Shown: piece after piece, positions 18,057 through 29,304 of the stretch
How the letters are laid out: the number at the start of each line of letters is the position of its first letter
How positions within the stretch are numbered: position 1 is the first letter of the stretch
NCBI RefSeq assembly: GCF_031760065.1
Contig: NZ_CP134500.1
Coordinates: 4,092,001-4,156,000 of the forward strand
Direction: 5' to 3'
DNA: 64,000 bases
DNA from: Streptomyces durocortorensis
GTDB taxonomy: Bacteria > Actinomycetota > Actinomycetes > Streptomycetales > Streptomycetaceae
Made by a program: the position numbers and the translations under genes
Notes under the pieces: generated by a model
What the model was told of the DNA's origin: nothing
Databases searched by the model: none
Seen by the model: only the letters and a program-made list of their open reading frames with translations

Positions 18057-18908
18057 ATGGGCAGCCACTCCGCACACCTGCCGACCCCGACCACCCCGGC
18101 CGGCCGCGAGGGCCTGAGCGCCGTCCTCGCCCGCCCCGACCGCGCGGTCATCGCCCTCGACTTCGACGGCACGCTCGCCGACATCGTCCCGGACCCCGAG
18201 CAGGCCCGGGCCCACCCCGGCGCGGTGCCCGCGCTCGCCGCGCTCGCGCCGAAGGTCGCCTCCATCGCCGTGATCACCGGCCGCCCGGCGGGCGTCGCGG
18301 TGCGCCACGGCGGCTTCGCGGGCGTCCCCGGCCTGGAGCACCTCGTCGTTCTCGGACATTACGGCGCCGAGCGCTGGGACGCCGTGACCGGCACCGTCCA
18401 CGCCCCCGCCCCGCATCCCGGCGTCAGCGCCGTGCGCGCCGAACTCCCCGGCGTACTCCACGAGTTCGGCGCCTGGCGCGGCACCTGGATCGAGGAGAAG
18501 GGGCAGGCTGTCGCCGTCCACACCCGGCGAGCCAAGGACCCGCAGGCAGCCTTCGAAGCGCTGCGCGGCCCCCTGGGCGAGCTGGCCGCGCGGCACGGGC
18601 TGATCGTCGAACCCGGCCGGCTGGTGCTGGAGTTGAGGCCGCCGGGCATGGACAAGGGCGTCGCCCTGGCGGACTACGTGACGGAGCTGGACGCCGAGTC
18701 CGTGGTGTACGCGGGCGACGACCTCGGGGACCTCGCCGCGTTCGCCGCGGTGGAGAAGCTGCGGACGGGGGGCCCGGACGGCATCCCCGGCCTGCTGGTG
18801 TGCAGCGGCAGCGCCGAGGTGCCCGAACTGGCCGAGCGCGCCGACCTGTCGGTGCCGGGCCCGGCCGCCGTGGTCGCGTTCCTGGCGGCGCTGGCCGAGC
18901 GGCTCTGA
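18057..18908 (+). CDS. otsB: Trehalose-6-phosphate phosphatase
   Basis: The 283-residue HAD-superfamily enzyme has motif I LDFDGTLADIVPD (nucleophile and acid Asp), motif II AVITGRP, a conserved GHYGAERWD segment, and motif IV VYAGDDLGDLAAFAAV, with GMDKGVAL before it. These are the signatures of OtsB, which dephosphorylates trehalose-6-P to trehalose. It converges on otsA with only 7 bases between stops, an unusual inward-facing layout for the two steps of one pathway. ATG 18057 is the annotated start; no strong binding site is visible. Trehalose serves as spore and stress solute in Streptomyces. Confidence 0.94.
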   Translation: MGSHSAHLPTPTTPAGREGLSAVLARPDRAVIALDFDGTLADIVPDPEQARAHPGAVPALAALAPKVASIAVITGRPAGVAVRHGGFAGVPGLEHLVVLGHYGAERWDAVTGTVHAPAPHPGVSAVRAELPGVLHEFGAWRGTWIEEKGQAVAVHTRRAKDPQAAFEALRGPLGELAARHGLIVEPGRLVLELRPPGMDKGVALADYVTELDAESVVYAGDDLGDLAAFAAVEKLRTGGPDGIPGLLVCSGSAEVPELAERADLSVPGPAAVVAFLAALAERL

Positions 18909-18915
18909 AGGGCCC

Positions 18916-20307
18916 TCACCCCTCCCGCAGCGCCTCCAGCTGGTCCAGGAACCACCGCTGCGGCGGCAGTGCGGTCGCGGCCTCCGCCAGCCGCTTCGTG
19001 CGGCCCGTCCGCTCCTCGGAGCCCATCGACAGGGCCTCGTGCAGTGCCTCCGCCGTGCCCACCACGTCGTACGGGTTCACCACGATCGCGTCCTCGCCCA
19101 GTTCCTCGTACGCCCCCGCCTCCCGCGACAGCACCAGCGCGCAGCCGTGGTCGGAGACGACGGGGACCTCCTTGGCGACCAGGTTCATGCCGTCGCGGAT
19201 CGGGTTGACCAGCGCCACGTCCGCCAGCCGGTACGCGGCCAGCGAGCGGGCGAAGTCGTCCTTGACGTGGAGGACCACCGGCGTCCAGCTCTCCGTCCCG
19301 TACGCCCCGTTGATCTCCGTGGCCAGGGACTGCACCGCGGCCGTGTAGTCCCGGTACACCGCGAGGTCCTGGCGGGAGGGGTAGGCGAAGGCGATGTGCA
19401 CGACTCGCTCGTGCCACTCCGGGTGGGCGTCCAGCAGGGCCCGGTACGCGTGCAGGCCGCGCACGATGTTCTTGGACAGCTCCGTGCGGTCCACCCGGAC
19501 GATGGTCTTCCGGCCCTCGCCGATCTGCTCGCGCAGCGCCGCCATCCGGTCGTCCACGTCCGGTTCCCGGGACCGCCGCCGCAGGAAGTCCGCGTCGGCC
19601 CCCAGCCCGTGCACCCCGATCCGGGTGCCGCCGGTCCCGCCGAGGAACTCCGTACAGCAGCCGATGAACGCGTCCGCCCAGCGGCGGGTCAGGAACGCGG
19701 CCCGGTCCGCGCCGAGGATGCCGCGCAGCAGCTGCTCGGCGATGTCGTCGGGCAGCAGCCGGAAGTAGTCGACGGGCGCCCACGGGGTGTGCGAGAAGTG
19801 GCCGATCCTCAGGTCGGGGCGCAGCTCGCGGAGCATTCCGGGGACCAGGGCCAGGTGGTAGTCCTGGACGAGGACCGCCGCCCCGGGGCCGGCCTCCTCG
19901 GCGAGCGCCCGGGCGAAGGCCCGGTTGTACCTCTCGTACGAGGCCCACCGGCGGCGGAACTCCGCGTCGAAGACCGGCTCGACGGGGGTCTGGTAGAGCA
20001 GGTGGTGGACGAACCACAGCACGGAGTTGGCGATGCCGTTGTACGCGTCGGCGTGCACCTCGGCGTCGATGTCCAGCATCCGGACGCCCGGCTCGCCGAC
20101 CCCGCGTCGCACGGCCTCGCGGTCGCCGTCGCCGAGGGCCGCGCAGACCCACAGCTTGTCGTCCACGGCGCTCAGCCCGGAGACGAGGCCGCCGCCGCCG
20201 CGCCTGGCGTCGAGCGTCCCGTCCTCACCGAGCGTGTACGAGACCGGGCCGCGGTTGGACGCGACGAGAACCTGGGCAGTCGAGTTGGGTGCGTGCTCGG
20301 AGACCAT
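18916..20307 (-). CDS. otsA: Alpha,alpha-trehalose-phosphate synthase (UDP-forming)
   Basis: The 463-residue GT20 glycosyltransferase makes trehalose-6-P from UDP-glucose and glucose-6-P. Motifs seen: VASNRGPVSY at the N-terminus, GGGGLVSGLSA (donor phosphate loop), DYHLALVPGMLRELRPDLRI, GHFSHTPWAPVDYFRLLP, VDRTELSKNIVRGLHAY, DGMNLVAKEV and a final LSREAGAYEELGEDAIVVNP. Length agrees with the family. It is transcribed toward otsB and lies 68 bases beyond gpgS, so gpgS-otsA may be co-transcribed. Confidence 0.96.
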   Translation of the reverse strand: MVSEHAPNSTAQVLVASNRGPVSYTLGEDGTLDARRGGGGLVSGLSAVDDKLWVCAALGDGDREAVRRGVGEPGVRMLDIDAEVHADAYNGIANSVLWFVHHLLYQTPVEPVFDAEFRRRWASYERYNRAFARALAEEAGPGAAVLVQDYHLALVPGMLRELRPDLRIGHFSHTPWAPVDYFRLLPDDIAEQLLRGILGADRAAFLTRRWADAFIGCCTEFLGGTGGTRIGVHGLGADADFLRRRSREPDVDDRMAALREQIGEGRKTIVRVDRTELSKNIVRGLHAYRALLDAHPEWHERVVHIAFAYPSRQDLAVYRDYTAAVQSLATEINGAYGTESWTPVVLHVKDDFARSLAAYRLADVALVNPIRDGMNLVAKEVPVVSDHGCALVLSREAGAYEELGEDAIVVNPYDVVGTAEALHEALSMGSEERTGRTKRLAEAATALPPQRWFLDQLEALREG

Positions 20308-20375
20308 GTAGCGGAACCTAGCCCGTTACGGAAGCCGCCAAACGCCTCGGCCCGCACACCGCCCGGCGAACCTCC

Positions 20376-21353
20376 CTACGCCGCGTGGCGCTCCGCGTAC
20401 TCCGCGATCTCCCGCATCGGCGGCCGCTCCTCCGTGTCCACCGCATGGGTGTGCGGCACGAACCCCTCCGCGCTCCGTTCGAACTGGGTCAGCGCGGGCC
20501 GCACCAGATGGCCCCGGGAGAGCCGCAGCTGCGCCGTACGGTAGATCGCCGCCGCCATCCGGCCCAGCGCCTGCCCGTCCTGGTGGCGGTGGACGCGCAC
20601 CCCGACGTCGACCTGGCCCAGCGCGTCCAGGCCCACGGTGTGCAGCGCGTCCACCAGCAGCCCCAGCTCCACCCCGTAACCGACCGGGAACGGCAGCCGC
20701 TCCAGCAGCGAGCGCCGCACCGCGTACTCCCCGCCCAGCGGCTGTACGAATCCGGCCAGCTGCGGCCAGTGCAGATTGAGCAGCGGGCGGGCCACCAGCT
20801 CGGTGACCCGGCCGCCCTGACCTGCGCTGTTGCCGAGCGGACGGTCGTACATCGCCTTGACGAACTGGACGGTGGGGTCGGTCAGCAGCGGTCCGACCGT
20901 CCCCGAGACGAAGTCCGCCGAGAAGTCCTTCAGATCGGCGTCGACGAAGCAGACGATCTCGCCGCTGGTAACCAGGAGCGACCGCCACAGCACCTCGCCC
21001 TTGCCGGGCAGGGCCGGGATACGGGGGAGGACCGCGTCCCGGTGGACCACCCGGGCGCCCGCCGCCCGGGCGACGGCGGCGGTGGCGTCGGTGGAGCCGG
21101 AGTCGATCACCACGAGCTCGTCGACCAGCCGGACCTTCTCCATCAGCTCGCGCCGGATCGTCGTCACGATCGCCCCGACCGTGGCCTCCTCGTTCAGCGC
21201 GGGCAGCACCACGCTCACCGACGTGCGGTGGGGGTCGGCGGCCCGGGCGTCGGTGAGCCGGTCCAGCGGGCGGTCGTCGCACGACCAGGAACGCCTGGTC
21301 AGCCAGCGCTCCACCTCTTCGAGCACGGTCGGCACTCCCTGTGTGTGATCCAT
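20376..21353 (-). CDS. gpgS: Glucosyl-3-phosphoglycerate synthase
   Basis: The 325-residue GT-A (GT81) enzyme transfers glucose from an NDP donor to 3-phosphoglycerate, the first step to glucosylglycerate and, in mycobacteria, methylglucose polysaccharide. It shows VSVVLPALNEEATVGAIV, ELVVIDSGSTDAT, the metal motif VCFVDADLKDFSADF, GGEYAVRRSLLERLPFPVGY and GVELGLLVDALHTVGLDALG. Next to otsA and otsB it completes a compatible-solute block. No GpgP phosphatase gene is adjacent. The gene runs away from the riboswitch-controlled operon that starts on the other strand. Confidence 0.93.
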   Translation of the reverse strand: MDHTQGVPTVLEEVERWLTRRSWSCDDRPLDRLTDARAADPHRTSVSVVLPALNEEATVGAIVTTIRRELMEKVRLVDELVVIDSGSTDATAAVARAAGARVVHRDAVLPRIPALPGKGEVLWRSLLVTSGEIVCFVDADLKDFSADFVSGTVGPLLTDPTVQFVKAMYDRPLGNSAGQGGRVTELVARPLLNLHWPQLAGFVQPLGGEYAVRRSLLERLPFPVGYGVELGLLVDALHTVGLDALGQVDVGVRVHRHQDGQALGRMAAAIYRTAQLRLSRGHLVRPALTQFERSAEGFVPHTHAVDTEERPPMREIAEYAERHAA

Positions 21354-21481
21354 CTCGCGGTTCGGACGACTATCTCAACGGTCCGGTGCTTCGGTTACAG
21401 TCTTGAACAACGCGGATGACCGTCGCATGTCGGGGTCACACCGCACATAAACGCCTGGATCGAAGATCCAGCGCCATAGAG

Positions 21482-21605
21482 CTCATCCAGAGGGACTGAG
21501 GGAACGGCCCGTTGAAGTCCCGGCAACCCTCCTACCGACCGCGAGGTCACGGTGGGGAAGGTGCCAATTCCGTCTTGTGGCGAAATGCGTCGCGAGGAAG
21601 ATGAG
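21482..21605 (+). promoter_or_regulatory. SAM-I (S-box) riboswitch
   Basis: The RNA has the S-box core: P1 strands CTCATC (21483-21487 region) and GATGAG (21600-21605), the kink-turn stretch AGAGGGACTGAGGGA, then ACGGCCCGTTGAAGTCCCGG, CAACC, and the 3' conserved GGTGCCAATTCC. It binds S-adenosylmethionine. The 3' strand of P1 adjoins GAGAAAGG, the only ribosome-binding-like sequence before the ATG at 21626, so translational control by P1 formation is likely. Genes under S-boxes normally belong to methionine, SAM or sulfur supply. Confidence 0.9.
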
Positions 21606-21625
21606 GAGAAAGGGCCTCCGCCATC

Positions 21626-22942
21626 ATGGCTGTTCAGACAGTTGCAGGTAACGCCGCCACCCCCGGCACCACCACCACTACGCCTTCCGTGGACCTCGGT
21701 CCCGCCGCGGCGCTTTCCTGCCGCGAGTGCGGCGAGCGTTTCGAGCTCGGCCCCCTTTTCGCCTGTGCGTCCTGTTTCGGGCCGCTGGAAGTGGCGTACG
21801 ACCTGCCCGCCGGTTCCCCCGAGGAGCTGAAGGCGCGCATCGAGGCCGGTCCGGACAACATCTGGCGCTACGCCCCGCTGCTGCCGGTCCCCGCCGACGT
21901 CGCGCAGAAGCCCAACCTCAACCCCGGCTTCACCAAGCTGGTCAAGGCCGACAACCTCGCCCGAGAGCTGGGCGTCACCGGCGGCCTGTACGTGAAGGAC
22001 GACTCCGGCAACCCGACGCACTCCTTCAAGGACCGCGTCGTCGCGATCGCCGTCGAGGCCGCCCGCGCCTTCGGTTTCACCACCCTCTCCTGCTCCTCCA
22101 CGGGCAACCTGGCCGGTGCCGTCGGTGCCGCCGCCGCCCGCGCCGGACTGCGCTCCTGCGTGTTCATCCCGCACGACCTGGAGCAGGGCAAGGTCGTCAT
22201 GGCCGCGGTGTACGGCGGTGAACTGGTCGGCATCGAGGGCAATTACGACGACGTCAACCGCTTCTGCTCCGAGCTCATCGGCGACCCGCTCGGCGAGGGC
22301 TGGGGCTTCGTCAACGTCAACCTCCGCCCGTACTACGGCGAGGGCTCCAAGACCCTGGCGTACGAGATCTGCGAACAGCTCGGCTGGCGGCTGCCCGACC
22401 AGATCGTCATCCCGATCGCGTCCGGCTCCCAGCTGACGAAGATCGACAAGGGGCTCCAGGAGCTCATCAAGCTCGGCCTGGTCGAGGACAGGCCGTACAA
22501 GATCTTCGGAGCCCAGGCCGAGGGCTGCTCCCCGGTCTCCGCCGCCTTCAAGGCCGGTCACGACGTCGTGCGGCCCCAGAAGCCGAACACCATCGCCAAG
22601 TCCCTGGCCATCGGCAACCCGGCGGACGGCCCGTACGTCCTGGACATCGCCCGCCGCACCGGCGGCGCGGTGGAGGACGTCACCGACGAGCAGGTCGTCG
22701 ACGCGATCAAGCTGCTGGCCCGCACCGAGGGCATCTTCGGTGAGACGGCGGGCGGGGTGACGCTCGGCGTGACGAAGAAGCTCATCGAGGCCGGCGTCAT
22801 CGACCCGGCGCTCACCACCGTCGTGGTCAACACCGGCGACGGACTCAAGACGCTCGACGCGGTCTCCGCGACCTCGCAGGCCACGGCGACGATCAAGCCG
22901 AGCCTGGACGCGTTCCGCACCGCGGGCCTCGGCTCCGCCTGA
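21626..22942 (+). CDS. thrC: Threonine-synthase-like PLP enzyme under SAM control
   Basis: The 438-residue fold-type II PLP enzyme has an N-terminal zinc ribbon (Cys32, Cys35, Cys47, Cys50: CRECGERFELGPLFACASC). It then has the ThrC core with PLP lysine K135 in GNPTHSFKDR, SCSSTGNLAGAVGAAAARAG, the phosphate cup IASGSQLTKIDKG, and a late VVNTGDGLKTLD. By family it should act on O-phosphohomoserine to make threonine. Yet it is behind a SAM riboswitch and 32 bases before a CysO-like sulfur carrier. That suggests it may instead replace the phosphate with carrier-bound sulfide to form homocysteine. From memory, a ThrC-like/sulfur-carrier route of this kind (MetM/MetO) has been reported in Streptomyces; I could not verify that here. 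The thrC label reflects homology only. Confidence 0.85.
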   Translation: MAVQTVAGNAATPGTTTTTPSVDLGPAAALSCRECGERFELGPLFACASCFGPLEVAYDLPAGSPEELKARIEAGPDNIWRYAPLLPVPADVAQKPNLNPGFTKLVKADNLARELGVTGGLYVKDDSGNPTHSFKDRVVAIAVEAARAFGFTTLSCSSTGNLAGAVGAAAARAGLRSCVFIPHDLEQGKVVMAAVYGGELVGIEGNYDDVNRFCSELIGDPLGEGWGFVNVNLRPYYGEGSKTLAYEICEQLGWRLPDQIVIPIASGSQLTKIDKGLQELIKLGLVEDRPYKIFGAQAEGCSPVSAAFKAGHDVVRPQKPNTIAKSLAIGNPADGPYVLDIARRTGGAVEDVTDEQVVDAIKLLARTEGIFGETAGGVTLGVTKKLIEAGVIDPALTTVVVNTGDGLKTLDAVSATSQATATIKPSLDAFRTAGLGSA

Positions 22943-22974
22943 CCACCCCAGAACGAAGGAAGAAGGGCACCACC

Positions 22975-23253
22975 ATGAGCGTCAAGGTCCGCATCCCCAC
23001 CATCCTCCGTACGTACACGGGCGGCCAGGCCGAGGTCACGGCGGAGGGCGCGAAGCTCTCCGAGGTCATCGAGTCCCTGGAGAAGGACCACCCCGGCATC
23101 GCCGCCCGAGTCCTGGACGACCAGGGCAAGCTGCGCCGCTTCGTCAACGTGTACGTCAACGACGACGACGTGCGCTTCGAGGGTGGTCTGGACGCGGCCA
23201 CGCCCGACGGCGCAGGTGTCTCGATCATCCCGGCCGTGGCCGGCGGCTGCTGA
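22975..23253 (+). CDS. MoaD/ThiS/CysO-like sulfur-carrier protein ending GGC
   Basis: The 92-residue beta-grasp protein opens with VRIPTILRTYTGGQAEVTAE, continues RRFVNVYVNDDDVRF and ends SIIPAVAGGC. It closely resembles mycobacterial CysO, whose C-terminal Gly-Gly is adenylated and converted to a thiocarboxylate that donates sulfur to CysM. Here a Cys follows the Gly-Gly and must be removed before activation. A JAMM-type peptidase such as Mec+, which cleaves CysO-Cys, would be a natural processing enzyme, but none is in the window. Placement directly after the ThrC-like gene, under a SAM riboswitch, makes it the probable sulfide donor of that enzyme. ATG 22975 has an AAGGAAGAAGG site. Confidence 0.9.
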   Translation: MSVKVRIPTILRTYTGGQAEVTAEGAKLSEVIESLEKDHPGIAARVLDDQGKLRRFVNVYVNDDDVRFEGGLDAATPDGAGVSIIPAVAGGC

Positions 23254-23279: not shown

Positions 23280-23312
23280 TTGCCCCCTCCGCGAGAGAAG
23301 CGGAGGGGGCAA
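23280..23312 (+). terminator. Terminator of the riboswitch operon
   Basis: A perfect 13-bp stem, TTGCCCCCTCCGC / GCGGAGGGGGCAA, with a 7-base loop and followed by TTCTG lies 27 bases after the carrier gene stop. Confidence 0.85.
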
Positions 23313-23672
23313 TTCTGCATGGTTGAGCGCGGTACAGTTGGGGAAGCCCCCTTCGCTGCCCGTGCCGCCCGCACATATGAGAATGCGCCCGGACCGATAA
23401 GAAGCAGCCAAAGTACGTGAACCTCTTGAGGCATAAGTGGCCTTTGCCTGGCCCGACTTGCCCGTAATTTTCAGCAATCCCGCATATTCGGGCGTTCGGC
23501 CGCGCCCAGAATTCTCGTCCGATTGACCTGTTGCAGAGGGCAGTTGGGCAGATACATTCAGCCGCGGTCGACGCGCTACGGCGCCGCACACCCTCTCCTG
23601 TCGGAGGGTGAGTTCTGACCCGGGCCCGCGAAGTGCGGTCCTGTGCAAGGGCCAGTAATAGGGGAGTTAGGC
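23313..23672 (+). other. Long non-coding leader region of the cold-shock gene
   Basis: These 360 bases are relatively A/T-rich for the window and hold no convincing gene. A TTGACC hexamer occurs at 23523-23528 and a small hairpin ACCCTCTCCTGTCGGAGGGT at about 23590-23609. Cold-shock genes often have long structured 5' leaders; this stretch is a candidate but no start site can be fixed by eye. Confidence 0.4.
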
Positions 23673-23879
23673 ATGGCTCAGGGCACCGTCAAGTGGTTCA
23701 ACGCGGAGAAGGGGTACGGCTTCATCGCGGTCGACGGTGGTGCGGATGTTTTCGTCCACTACAGCGCGATCCAGATGGACGGGTACCGCACCCTCGAAGA
23801 GGGTCAGCGAGTTGAATTCGAGATCTCGCAGGGCCAGAAGGGGCCCCAGGCCGACATGGTCAAGCTCGCCGTCGGCTGA
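23673..23879 (+). CDS. Cold-shock domain protein
   Basis: The 68-residue single cold-shock domain protein has both RNA-binding motifs: RNP1 KGYGFIAV and RNP2 VFVHY, with the start [18 protein letters not shown]. CspA-like proteins melt mRNA secondary structure. ATG 23673 follows GGGGAG 8 bases upstream. The gene is monocistronic, with a long leader and a strong terminator. This family is multi-copy in Streptomyces, so I give no paralogue name. Confidence 0.95.
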
Positions 23880-24069: not shown

Positions 24070-25845
<1,776 letters not shown>

Positions 25846-27280: not shown

Positions 27281-27330
27281 TCCGCCGGTCCCCTACCCCC
27301 GCACTGTGTGAGAACTTCCGGAAGGTGAAG

Positions 27331-29304
27331 ATGCCCGGCCAGCTGCGTGACTACTTCGTCGTCCTGCCGGACAGCGTGGCGGGAGCGGCGGCGGCCGGGC
27401 GGCTTCCCGCACCGGGAGTGACCGGAGCGGCCCCGCCGGTGGGCGACGCCCTGACCGTCGCCCACCCCTCGGGCCGGCCCTGGGTCGTCGCCCGCCCGCT
27501 GGTCCGCAAGCTCAGCCACCTCGCCCGGGGCGGGGACGCCCTCGTCCTCATCGGCCCGGACCGCGTCCCCGACGCCGTGCTCGCCGGGCTCCTGGACGGC
27601 GCCCGGAGCCGGACAGCCCTGGAGGCCCGCCTCACCCGGCTGCCCGGCCTCTACCACGTGGTCGCCCGGCTCTCCGGGGAGACCTGGGTCCGGGGAACCG
27701 CCACCGGACTGCGCCGGATCTACCACGCCCGGCACCCGGACGCCGGAACCATCGCGTCCGACCGCCCCGCCGTCCTGGCCCGCCTGATCGACGCGCCCCT
27801 GGACGACGGCGCGCTCGCGCTGCGGCTGCTGGACTTCGTGCCGCACCCCCTGAGCCGGCGCGTCGTGTGGCGGGGCGTCCACGAGACCGGTGCCGGGTAC
27901 GGCCTGGCCCTGCCCGTCGCAGCACCGGGCACGGCCGCCGTCCCCGGCCCCGCGGAGCACCGCTGGTGGGAGCCGCCGCCGGGCGAACTCTCCCTGGCGG
28001 AGGGGGCCCGAAGACTCGGTGACGCGGTCGCCGCCTCCGTACGGGCCCATGTCGGCGGCCTGGACCGGATCAGCTGCGAGCTCTCCGGCGGCATGGACTC
28101 CACGGCCCTCACCTTCGTCGCCCGGGAGACCGGCCCGGCGAGCCTGTCCCTGCTGACGGTGGCCGCCCGGGACCGCTACAGCGAGGACGAGACTTGGGCG
28201 CGGAGGGCGGTGGAGGCGGCGCGGGGAGCCGAGGCGGCGCAGAAGGGCGTGGCGGGACGGGGAGCCGAGGCGGCGCGGCGAACAGCGGATGCCTCCGCCC
28301 TGGACCACCACCTCATCCCCGCCGACGACGCCCCCTACTTCTACGCCGACCTCGCCGCCACCTCCGCCGAGCTCAACGACGAACCGCTCCCCGTCGCCCC
28401 CGGCCGGGCCCGCGCGCACCTGCTCCTGAGCCGCGCCCGCGCCACCGGCTCCCGCTACCACCTCACCGGCTACGGCGGCGACGAACTCTTCCTCGGCCTG
28501 CCCCACGCCTACCAGGACCTCTTCCACGGCAACCCCCTCACCGCCTGGAACCACCTCAGCGGCCTGCGCCACCAGCTCGGCTGGCCCCTCCTGCCCACGC
28601 TGAAGGCCCTGTTGGGCCGCTCCACGTTCCCCCGCTGGATCGCGGGCGCGGTCAGCGACGAAACCCAGCCCGTAGCCAGGACCCCGCTGCTCTCCTGGGG
28701 CGTACGGCAGTCCCTGCGCCCGTGGTTCACGGACCACGGATGCGCCCTGATCACGGAGGAGTTCCGGGCCGCCGCCGAGCACGCCGAGCCGATCGACCCG
28801 TGGCGCGGGCGGCATGTGGACATCGACGCCGTACGGATGGGGGCCCGGCACTTCCAGGCGATGGAGGACGTCGGCATGACGATCGGGCTGCCGGTCGCCG
28901 CGCCCTTCTACGACGACCGGGTCCTGGAGGCGACCCTCGCCGTCCGGCTGCCGGAGCGGATCAGCCCCTGGCGCTACAAGCCGCTCCTCGCCGAGGCGAT
29001 GCGCGGGGTGGTGCCGGATGCGCTGCTGGCCCGGACGACGAAGGACCACATGTCCTCCGACGAACACCAGGGCCTGAGTGAACACGGGCCGGAACTCGCG
29101 GAGTTGTGGGCGGACTCCCGGCTCGCCGCGCATGGCCTGGTCGACTCCCGCCGTCTGCTCCGGCTCGCCGCCGAGCCCTTCTCGCCGGTCCTGGTCGAGC
29201 ACTCCATCAGCCCGACCGTGGCCGGGGAGACCTGGCTGCGCACGGCGCAGAACGCCTGGCCCGCACTCCGTTCCACCACCCCCTCCAGCGAGGCGACCCT
29301 GTGA
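27331..29304 (+). CDS. Lasso cyclase (asparagine-synthetase-like, C protein)
   Basis: The 657-residue protein has an N-terminal region replacing the glutaminase domain (about 1-230) and a C-terminal ATP-pyrophosphatase domain with the loop SGGMDST at 252-258. It also has GYGGDELF and APFYDDRVLEATLAVRLPER, LARTTKDHMSSDEHQG later. It should adenylate the Glu9 side chain and close the ring onto the Gly1 amine. Oddity: residues about 295-320 carry an in-frame duplication (GAEAAQKG...GAEAARR; 19-base repeats at 28222-28240 and 28258-28276) in a low-complexity insert. ATG 27331 follows GGAAGG. The stop overlaps the next gene's GTG. Confidence 0.93.
   Translation: MPGQLRDYFVVLPDSVAGAAAAGRLPAPGVTGAAPPVGDALTVAHPSGRPWVVARPLVRKLSHLARGGDALVLIGPDRVPDAVLAGLLDGARSRTALEARLTRLPGLYHVVARLSGETWVRGTATGLRRIYHARHPDAGTIASDRPAVLARLIDAPLDDGALALRLLDFVPHPLSRRVVWRGVHETGAGYGLALPVAAPGTAAVPGPAEHRWWEPPPGELSLAEGARRLGDAVAASVRAHVGGLDRISCELSGGMDSTALTFVARETGPASLSLLTVAARDRYSEDETWARRAVEAARGAEAAQKGVAGRGAEAARRTADASALDHHLIPADDAPYFYADLAATSAELNDEPLPVAPGRARAHLLLSRARATGSRYHLTGYGGDELFLGLPHAYQDLFHGNPLTAWNHLSGLRHQLGWPLLPTLKALLGRSTFPRWIAGAVSDETQPVARTPLLSWGVRQSLRPWFTDHGCALITEEFRAAAEHAEPIDPWRGRHVDIDAVRMGARHFQAMEDVGMTIGLPVAAPFYDDRVLEATLAVRLPERISPWRYKPLLAEAMRGVVPDALLARTTKDHMSSDEHQGLSEHGPELAELWADSRLAAHGLVDSRRLLRLAAEPFSPVLVEHSISPTVAGETWLRTAQNAWPALRSTTPSSEATL

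What the first reader, a model, noticed from the sequence alone, without database searches (positions are those of the whole stretch)
21482..23253. SAM riboswitch controls a ThrC-like enzyme and a CysO-like carrier ending in Gly-Gly-Cys
Seen directly: an S-box aptamer, a threonine-synthase-like PLP enzyme with zinc ribbon, and a beta-grasp carrier whose end is AVAGGC, then a strong terminator. Known: S-boxes control methionine/SAM genes, and in mycobacteria CysO thiocarboxylate plus the fold-II PLP enzyme CysM makes cysteine. Inference: this pair makes homocysteine from O-phosphohomoserine using carrier sulfide, with the extra Cys first removed by a JAMM peptidase. I recall a similar Streptomyces route being reported (MetM/MetO), unverified here; the Cys-capped tail and its processing may be the least described part.
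Basis: partly seen in the sequence, partly recalled or inferred. Interest (0 to 1): 0.85.

Follow-up and report, generated by a model that had tools for sequence, protein, structure and literature searches.

The report
Streptomyces MetM-MetO homocysteine pathway operon
This is a SAM-controlled two-gene unit by which Streptomyces very probably makes homocysteine for methionine from a threonine precursor and a protein-bound sulfur, a route already published in this genus; what may be new is that some related bacteria keep the enzyme but seem to run it on the cysteine pathway's sulfur carrier.

Summary
In detail: an SAM-I riboswitch (21480-21607), a ThrC-like PLP enzyme (21626-22942) and a ThiS-fold carrier ending AVAGGC (22975-23253) stand in a row, followed by a strong hairpin. 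But it is not new. [quoted passage not shown] The Cys cap is labile: 46 of 80 Streptomyces loci have it, 34 end in bare GG. New as far as I could search: the riboswitch precedes 59 of 59 sampled MetM genes of the class, its P1 stem running into the ribosome-binding region; and 13 of those 59 lack metO. Those 13 genomes hold one close carrier, always between a JAMM-motif and a CysM-motif gene, so one carrier and one peptidase probably feed both cysteine and methionine synthesis there. No activity was tested.

The parts
21480..21607 (+). SAM-I (S-box) riboswitch aptamer
   Evidence: RF00162, 81 bits, full model 1-108
21600..21614 (+). P1 3' strand (GATGAGGA, 21600-21607) running into the purine-rich ribosome-binding region of metM (GAGGAGAAAGGG)
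   Evidence: sequence and Rfam alignment; in relatives, riboswitch end to first in-frame start codon is 6-18 nt in 55 of 56 measured
21626..22942 (+). metM: ThrC-like fold-type II PLP enzyme, 438 aa, predicted O-phosphohomoserine-dependent homocysteine synthase
   Evidence: PF00291 221 bits, TIGR00260 272 bits; nearest solved structures are threonine synthases
21719..21775 (+). CxxC-x11-CxxC zinc-ribbon-like motif of MetM (residues 32-50)
   Evidence: absent from the genome's two other ThrC-like proteins examined, but present in the 40%-identical control protein of another genome
22010..22042 (+). MetM signature NPTHSFKDRVV around the expected PLP lysine (K135); the genome's own ThrC reads NPTGSFKDRGM
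   Evidence: position of the PLP lysine by homology
22956..22967 (+). purine-rich ribosome-binding site of metO
   Evidence: sequence
22975..23253 (+). metO: ThiS/MoaD-fold sulfur carrier, 92 aa, ends AVAGG-Cys
   Evidence: PF02597 58.7 bits; nearest solved relatives 4n6e_B and 3dwg_C
23242..23250 (+). Gly-Gly plus the encoded Cys cap (TGC, 23248-23250)
   Evidence: sequence; cap present in 46 of 80 Streptomyces loci
23280..23312 (+). strong GC hairpin behind metO, probable terminator
   Evidence: -37.1 kcal/mol, z -5.97; no consensus T-run

Best explanation
This is the metM-metO operon. When SAM is low, the riboswitch's P1 stem opens and frees the ribosome-binding region of metM; when SAM is high, P1 closes over it (inferred from layout). 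MetO is translated with an extra Cys after Gly-Gly. The JAMM peptidase encoded near cysO-cysM removes the Cys (inferred). MoeZ adenylates the exposed glycine and loads sulfur, giving MetO-COSH (inferred). MetM takes O-phosphohomoserine, the product of ThrB and substrate of the separate ThrC, and attaches the carrier's sulfur, giving homocysteine (reported for MetM of S. albulus, inferred here). If the product first forms as a carrier adduct, as in CysO/CysM (recalled), the same peptidase would release it, which would explain why one peptidase suits both jobs. The Cys cap itself is probably tolerated rather than required.
For: Riboswitch 81 bits, the genome's only one over the cut-off, and over the gathering score before 59 of 59 sampled MetM genes but not before the one 40%-identical ThrC-like control. 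Separate lysA-hom-thrC-thrB operon. No metX or metA match. MoeZ NF005902 754 bits against a cut-off of 647, with a rhodanese domain. One strong PF14464 match, about 3.6 kb from cysO. In 197 genomes of the class this peptidase family is matched in 132 of 136 with MetM and 30 of 61 without, and 53 of the 61 without MetM have metX. Published, as told by a citing paper: MetM is a homocysteine synthase in Streptomyces that uses O-phosphohomoserine and prevents methionine auxotrophy in S. albulus, where metM has an upstream SAM riboswitch (passages of PMC12172450). In S. platensis, deleting the JAMM gene ptmS1 or the MoeZ-type gene ptmS4 abolished thioplatensimycin and thioplatencin production, and PtmS3 carries a single Cys after GG (passages of PMC6006322).
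Against: No activity was tested. Hasebe 2024 could not be read, and the S. albulus proteins were not compared directly with this pair. The genome keeps a cystathionine gamma-synthase-type enzyme (NF005871 686 bits), a gamma-lyase-type one and a third strong PF01053 member of unclear subfamily, so another homocysteine route is not fully excluded. Strong metX is present in 59 of 136 genomes with MetM, including 6 of 16 Streptomyces. In a ligand-free fold of the leader the two states are nearly equal in energy (-69.2 kcal/mol, and -68.4 with the 5' P1 strand blocked), and the GAGG stretch of the ribosome-binding region pairs in the blocked state too; only the GGG at 21612-21614 becomes more open, unpaired probability 0.56-0.93 rising to 0.97-0.98. 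The cyanobacterial homologue was reported to act as threonine synthase and deaminase, and its authors doubt that it works fully as MetM in the cell. Four MetM genomes have no peptidase match; they are 78-86% complete.
Confidence: 0.9

Rival explanations
1. The enzyme is an ordinary threonine synthase and the riboswitch reflects general control of the aspartate family.
For: It passes the thrC equivalog cut-off, and its closest solved structures are threonine synthases. A cyanobacterial homologue was reported to act as threonine synthase and deaminase (passages of PMC12172450).
Against: A higher-scoring thrC (324 bits for TIGR00260) lies in lysA-hom-thrC-thrB of the same genome. MetM differs from it around the PLP lysine (NPTHSFKDRVV against NPTGSFKDRGM) and has a zinc ribbon that this ThrC lacks. 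SAM riboswitch before 59 of 59 sampled relatives.
Confidence: 0.04
2. MetM works in the cell mainly with free sulfide or with CysO, and MetO is an auxiliary carrier.
For: 13 of 59 sampled MetM genes have no metO in the roughly 450 nt behind them, and their genomes hold one close carrier, between a JAMM-motif and a CysM-motif gene.
Against: In Streptomyces the carrier gene is in all 80 loci kept and behind metM in all 15 class-draw congeners fetched; 46 of 59 sampled MetM genes have it directly behind. The cyanobacterial homologue given Na2S with O-phosphohomoserine gave only an unidentified peak.
Confidence: 0.15
3. The encoded Cys cap has a selected function of its own, for instance as a mimic of the carrier-cysteine adduct that makes the new protein a good peptidase substrate, or as a latch against early activation.
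For: The cap is nearly always Cys when present: 9 of 10 capped tails among 45 readable ones of the class sample, the tenth Ala. The 9 lie in four families of the draw.
Against: Presence and absence switch 12 times on a tree of 95 Streptomyces loci. Most capped tails read GGC-TGC-stop (43 of 46 in Streptomyces), which a 3-base duplication across a GGC-TGA junction would give; this is weak, because GGC and TGC are also the expected codons at this GC content. CysO caps vary freely.
Confidence: 0.15

Closest known systems
MetM/MetO of Streptomyces albulus (Hasebe 2024, Appl Environ Microbiol 90:e01247-24)
   Same: ThrC-like enzyme, sulfur carrier gene, upstream SAM riboswitch, same genus (as described in passages of PMC12172450)
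   Different: Nothing established. The paper is not held, so its sequences and any word on the cap could not be compared.
PtmS1/PtmS2/PtmS3/PtmS4 of Streptomyces platensis (PMC6006322)
   Same: PtmS3 has a single Cys after GG and its GG form is residues 1-91, the length of MetO here without its Cys. PtmS2, capped MV, is an orthologue of this genome's CysO (a protein named PtmS2 is 91% identical and ends GGMV). The JAMM peptidase gene and the MoeZ-type gene are required for sulfur delivery.
   Different: Studied there as sulfur donors for thioplatensimycin; 'threonine synthase' and 'methionine' do not occur in the main text. Deleting ptmS2 alone did not stop production. That PtmS3 is MetO is my inference.
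CysM/CysO/Mec of actinobacteria
   Same: Fold-type II PLP enzyme using a phospho-amino acid and a carrier thiocarboxylate (CysM: PMC12910592 passages), with JAMM peptidase and MoeZ (recalled)
   Different: Makes cysteine from O-phosphoserine; here a separate cysO-cysM pair exists in the same genome
HcyS/HcyF/HcyD of Wolinella succinogenes (recalled; my one search did not surface it)
   Same: Carrier-thiocarboxylate route to homocysteine with a JAMM peptidase that uncaps the carrier
   Different: Recalled to use a MetY-type enzyme and an O-acetylhomoserine-type substrate, not a ThrC-type enzyme

Membership tests
MetM/MetO homocysteine pathway | ThrC-like enzyme that is not the genome's threonine synthase | tested here: met
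   separate lysA-hom-thrC-thrB row; different motifs
MetM/MetO homocysteine pathway | SAM riboswitch upstream of metM | tested here: met
   relatives
MetM/MetO homocysteine pathway | sulfur carrier gene directly downstream | tested here: met
   32-nt gap
MetM/MetO homocysteine pathway | conversion of O-phosphohomoserine to homocysteine with carrier thiocarboxylate | not testable with these tools
   needs an enzyme assay
MetM/MetO homocysteine pathway | orthology to the S. albulus proteins themselves | not tested
   S. albulus sequences not fetched; genus-wide conservation only (16 of 16 Streptomyces of the draw, 79-100% identity)
SAM-I riboswitch (RF00162) | score over the gathering threshold, full-length model | tested here: met
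   81 against 44.4 bits
SAM-I riboswitch (RF00162) | SAM binding and control of metM expression | not testable with these tools
   ligand-free fold alone is inconclusive
Threonine synthase (as biological role) | the genome's threonine synthase, linked to hom/thrB | tested here: not met
   that place is taken by another ThrC
CysO/CysM cysteine pathway | carrier next to cysM and in the mec-linked carrier group | tested here: not met
   not next to cysM; falls with 46 other metM-linked carriers, apart from 21 mec-linked ones (branch 97/64, not starred)
JAMM-processed capped carriers | residue(s) after Gly-Gly and a JAMM peptidase in the genome | tested here: met
   GGC tail; PF14464 104.5 bits
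JAMM-processed capped carriers | removal of the cap by that peptidase | not testable with these tools
   needs mass spectrometry

The most novel reading that the evidence does not exclude
In several actinomycete lineages MetM has lost (or never had) its own carrier and draws sulfur from CysO, so that one thiocarboxylate carrier and one JAMM peptidase feed both cysteine and methionine synthesis, with the methionine enzyme under SAM control; MetO would then be a dedicated, dispensable second carrier.
Probability: 0.55. Interest if true: 0.45.

Novelty: already known. Interest (0 to 1): 0.3.

Why it matters
It accounts for how a genome with no metX or metA match can make homocysteine, and suggests that many actinomycete proteins that score as 'threonine synthase' are methionine enzymes, recognisable by the riboswitch and the NPT(H/N)SFKDR motif (the zinc ribbon alone does not separate them). 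The metO-less genomes offer a direct test of whether one sulfur carrier can serve two amino acid pathways.

Tried and rejected
Rejected: housekeeping threonine synthase. Rejected: the Cys cap as a defining feature of the carrier. Rejected: MetM and metX as strict alternatives; 59 of 136 MetM genomes also have a strong metX. Rejected: the zinc ribbon as a mark of MetM alone, since all 141 rows have it and these include the 40%-identical control. Counting choices: I dropped G007 (40% identity) from MetM, and counted four genomes whose only metX match is 145-164 bits (G019, G053, G136, G172) as metX-negative; no genome and no control reached the TIGR01392 cut-off of 500 bits. The Fisher values ignore kinship and are not used as evidence.

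Led nowhere: searches for the Hasebe text and for the Wolinella system (swamped by medical papers). The contiguous-riboswitch paper (PMC12452182) does not treat this locus in the 12 passages seen. A FastTree protein tree gave 18 cap changes (14 in Streptomyces, 4 outside); I rely on the DNA tree (12 in 95 rows). Three of the 59 riboswitch-to-start gaps were not measured because my motif missed their Asn variant; one measured gap is 164 nt, at L138, whose riboswitch match is weak (46.8 bits). No structure was predicted.

Full report
What is there. The window lies in a one-contig genome of 7.296 Mb. A Streptomyces locus has an identical MetM (L024), so the host is very probably a Streptomyces. 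Rfam at gathering thresholds gives one match in the window, an SAM-I riboswitch at 21480-21607 with 81 bits, the only one over the cut-off in the genome. It is followed by a 438-aa ThrC-like PLP enzyme, 32 nt later by a 92-aa ThiS-family carrier ending AVAGGC, and then by a very stable hairpin at 23280-23312, which has no good T-run and was not listed by the consensus scan.

The genome around it. Of the three other matches to MetM in the genome, one (36% identity) lies in a lysA-hom-thrC-thrB row at about 5.336-5.342 Mb, so the threonine pathway has its own ThrC and makes O-phosphohomoserine. No metX match (TIGR01392, E 0.001) and no metA match (PF04204, E 0.01) was found; the same searches rang in 9 and 8 of 14 control genomes. 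PF01053 gives three strong matches (272-502 bits) and three marginal ones just over the cut-off. The strong ones are a cystathionine gamma-synthase type over its cut-off, a gamma-lyase type over its cut-off, and one of unclear subfamily, best methionine gamma-lyase at 297 bits, under the cut-off. A second carrier, 54% identical, ends AVAGGMR and stands directly before cysM. One strong JAMM-family match lies about 3.6 kb from it; a second at 15.1 bits is under the cut-off. The strong one has the stretch HSHTATEAYPSRTD, which fits the JAMM motif HxHx7SxxD (motif recalled; sequence). One MoeZ with a rhodanese domain is present. All parts that the route needs are therefore encoded.

All 80 hold the carrier, and the 17 of those 80 that I scanned all have the riboswitch. 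In an even draw of 197 genomes of the class, 137 have a match at E 1e-60 or better; one, at 40% identity, I count as an ordinary ThrC-like protein. I fetched 60 of these 137 places, chosen to span the families: 59 MetM plus that one as control. The riboswitch is over the gathering score before 59 of 59 and not before the control; one of the 59 is weak (46.8 bits). From riboswitch end to the first in-frame start codon it is 6-18 nt in 55 of 56 measured, 164 nt in the other. There is little room for a terminator, and P1's 3' strand, exactly AAGATGAGGA in 34 of 56, runs into the purine-rich ribosome-binding region. Control of translation by P1 is the natural reading. In a ligand-free fold of the window's leader, however, the open and closed states are almost equal in energy, and the GAGG stretch pairs in the blocked state too, only the GGG after it opening further; so the switch is not shown. 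Of 141 rows (window, 80 Streptomyces loci, 60 class loci including the control), 139 carry NPT(H/N)SFKDRVV, one NPTHSFKDRPV and one neither (which row was not printed). All 141, so the control too, have a CxxC pair of the ribbon type. The genome's own ThrC reads NPTGSFKDRGM and lacks the ribbon.

Company. PF14464 is matched in 132 of 136 MetM genomes and in 30 of 61 others; the four exceptions are 78-86% complete. Strong metX is in 59 of 136 MetM genomes and 53 of 61 others, so 189 of 197 have at least one of the two. In Streptomyces metX is in 6 of 16. MetM is thus not a strict replacement for metX. These counts do not correct for kinship.

The Cys cap. Among the best 120 carrier relatives (of 8000 scored), 67 end AVAGGC, 50 AVAGG and 3 otherwise. 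Among the 80 Streptomyces loci it is 46 GGC and 34 GG. Of the 46 class loci with metO, one tail runs off the fetched stretch; of the other 45, 9 are GGC, 1 GGA and 35 GG. On a DNA tree of 95 Streptomyces loci the cap changes 12 times, against a mean of 31.8 and a minimum of 24 in 200 label shuffles. It is therefore labile and not required. CysO is different: none of its best 120 relatives ends in bare GG (the list is biased towards the capped query), while in the class sample its tails range from none to some 20 residues. The cap and its processing are in print: in S. platensis two capped carriers, PtmS2 (MV) and PtmS3 (C), two uncapped ones, one JAMM peptidase (PtmS1) and one MoeZ-type protein (PtmS4, written MoaZ there) were described. 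Deleting ptmS1 or ptmS4 stopped thioplatensimycin and thioplatencin production, deleting ptmS2 did not, and the GG forms of both capped carriers supported sulfur transfer in the reconstituted reaction, with about 3-fold rate enhancement (PMC6006322, passages). A protein named PtmS2 is 91% identical to the CysO here and ends GGMV. That PtmS3 is MetO is inferred from its cap and length.

Carrier sharing. Of the 59 sampled MetM genes, 13 have no carrier gene in the roughly 450 nt fetched behind them. A whole-genome search of these 13, with 7 metO-bearing genomes beside them, found one close carrier (52-62% identity) in each of the 13; two of them also have a distant one (43%, 36%). Each of the 7 has two close ones. 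Two of the 13 genomes are under 90% complete (75% and 87%), so a metO could be missing from those assemblies. In 13 of 13 the close carrier stands between a JAMM-motif stretch and CysM-motif stretches. On a 70-row carrier tree these 13 fall with the 8 CysO proteins, not with the 47 MetO (branch 97/64, not starred; few columns). On a quick MetM tree MetO presence changes 7 times, at least 3 by starred branches. Six of the 13 have metX and seven do not; metA was not tested in them. The simplest reading is that MetM uses CysO there. The listings of my paper searches and the passages of the four papers I opened showed no statement of this, but the main paper could not be read.

Literature seen. 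PMC12172450: passages only; it cites Hasebe, Adachi, Maruyama and Hamano 2024 for MetM as a homocysteine synthase in Streptomyces with homologues in cyanobacteria, names metO in S. albulus, and says S. albulus metM has an upstream SAM riboswitch. It also reports that the cyanobacterial homologue acts as threonine synthase and threonine deaminase and doubts that it works fully as MetM in the cell. Hasebe 2024 itself: nothing seen. PMC6006322: passages only. PMC12452182 and PMC12910592: passages only. The Wolinella Hcy system and the detail of CysO-cysteine adduct release are recalled.

Verdict. A correct and well-argued reading of a known pathway. What I add: the riboswitch in every MetM place sampled across the class with its translational layout, a sequence mark that separates MetM from ThrC, the lability of the cap, and the metO-less genomes that point to carrier sharing.

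Noticed in passing
L173-L185 (carriers of 13 unnamed actinomycete genomes); their metM places are L121, L122, L123, L127, L128, L137, L138, L139, L146, L147, L157, L160, L161: SAM-riboswitch-preceded metM without metO behind it; the genome's only close carrier stands between a JAMM-motif and a CysM-motif gene.
   Followed up: yes
L181, L178: Carriers whose C-terminal extensions repeat the AVAGG-type ending (L181 ends ...VTVLPAVAGG a second time; L178 ends AVAGGAGGVAGG), as if the end had been duplicated.
   Followed up: no
L022:4926-6050:- (G000:C1 about 5.026 Mb): A third ThrC-like protein (374 aa, PTLSFKDRG motif, no zinc ribbon) that reaches no threonine synthase cut-off in NCBIfam; role unknown.
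   Followed up: partly
window 23643-23879 + and 24220-25845 +: Cold-shock domain protein and Cpn60-family chaperonin downstream of metO.
   Followed up: no
window 18057-21353: Trehalose-phosphatase (+), family-20 glycosyltransferase (-) and family-2 glycosyltransferase (-) upstream of the riboswitch.
   Followed up: no
window 27325-29304 +: Asparagine-synthase-domain protein (PF00733, 120 bits); role not examined.
   Followed up: no
genomes G007, G010, G014, G076, G081, G084, G140, G150: Eight of 197 class genomes match neither MetM nor metX at my thresholds; their homocysteine route is open, though several of these assemblies are incomplete.
   Followed up: no
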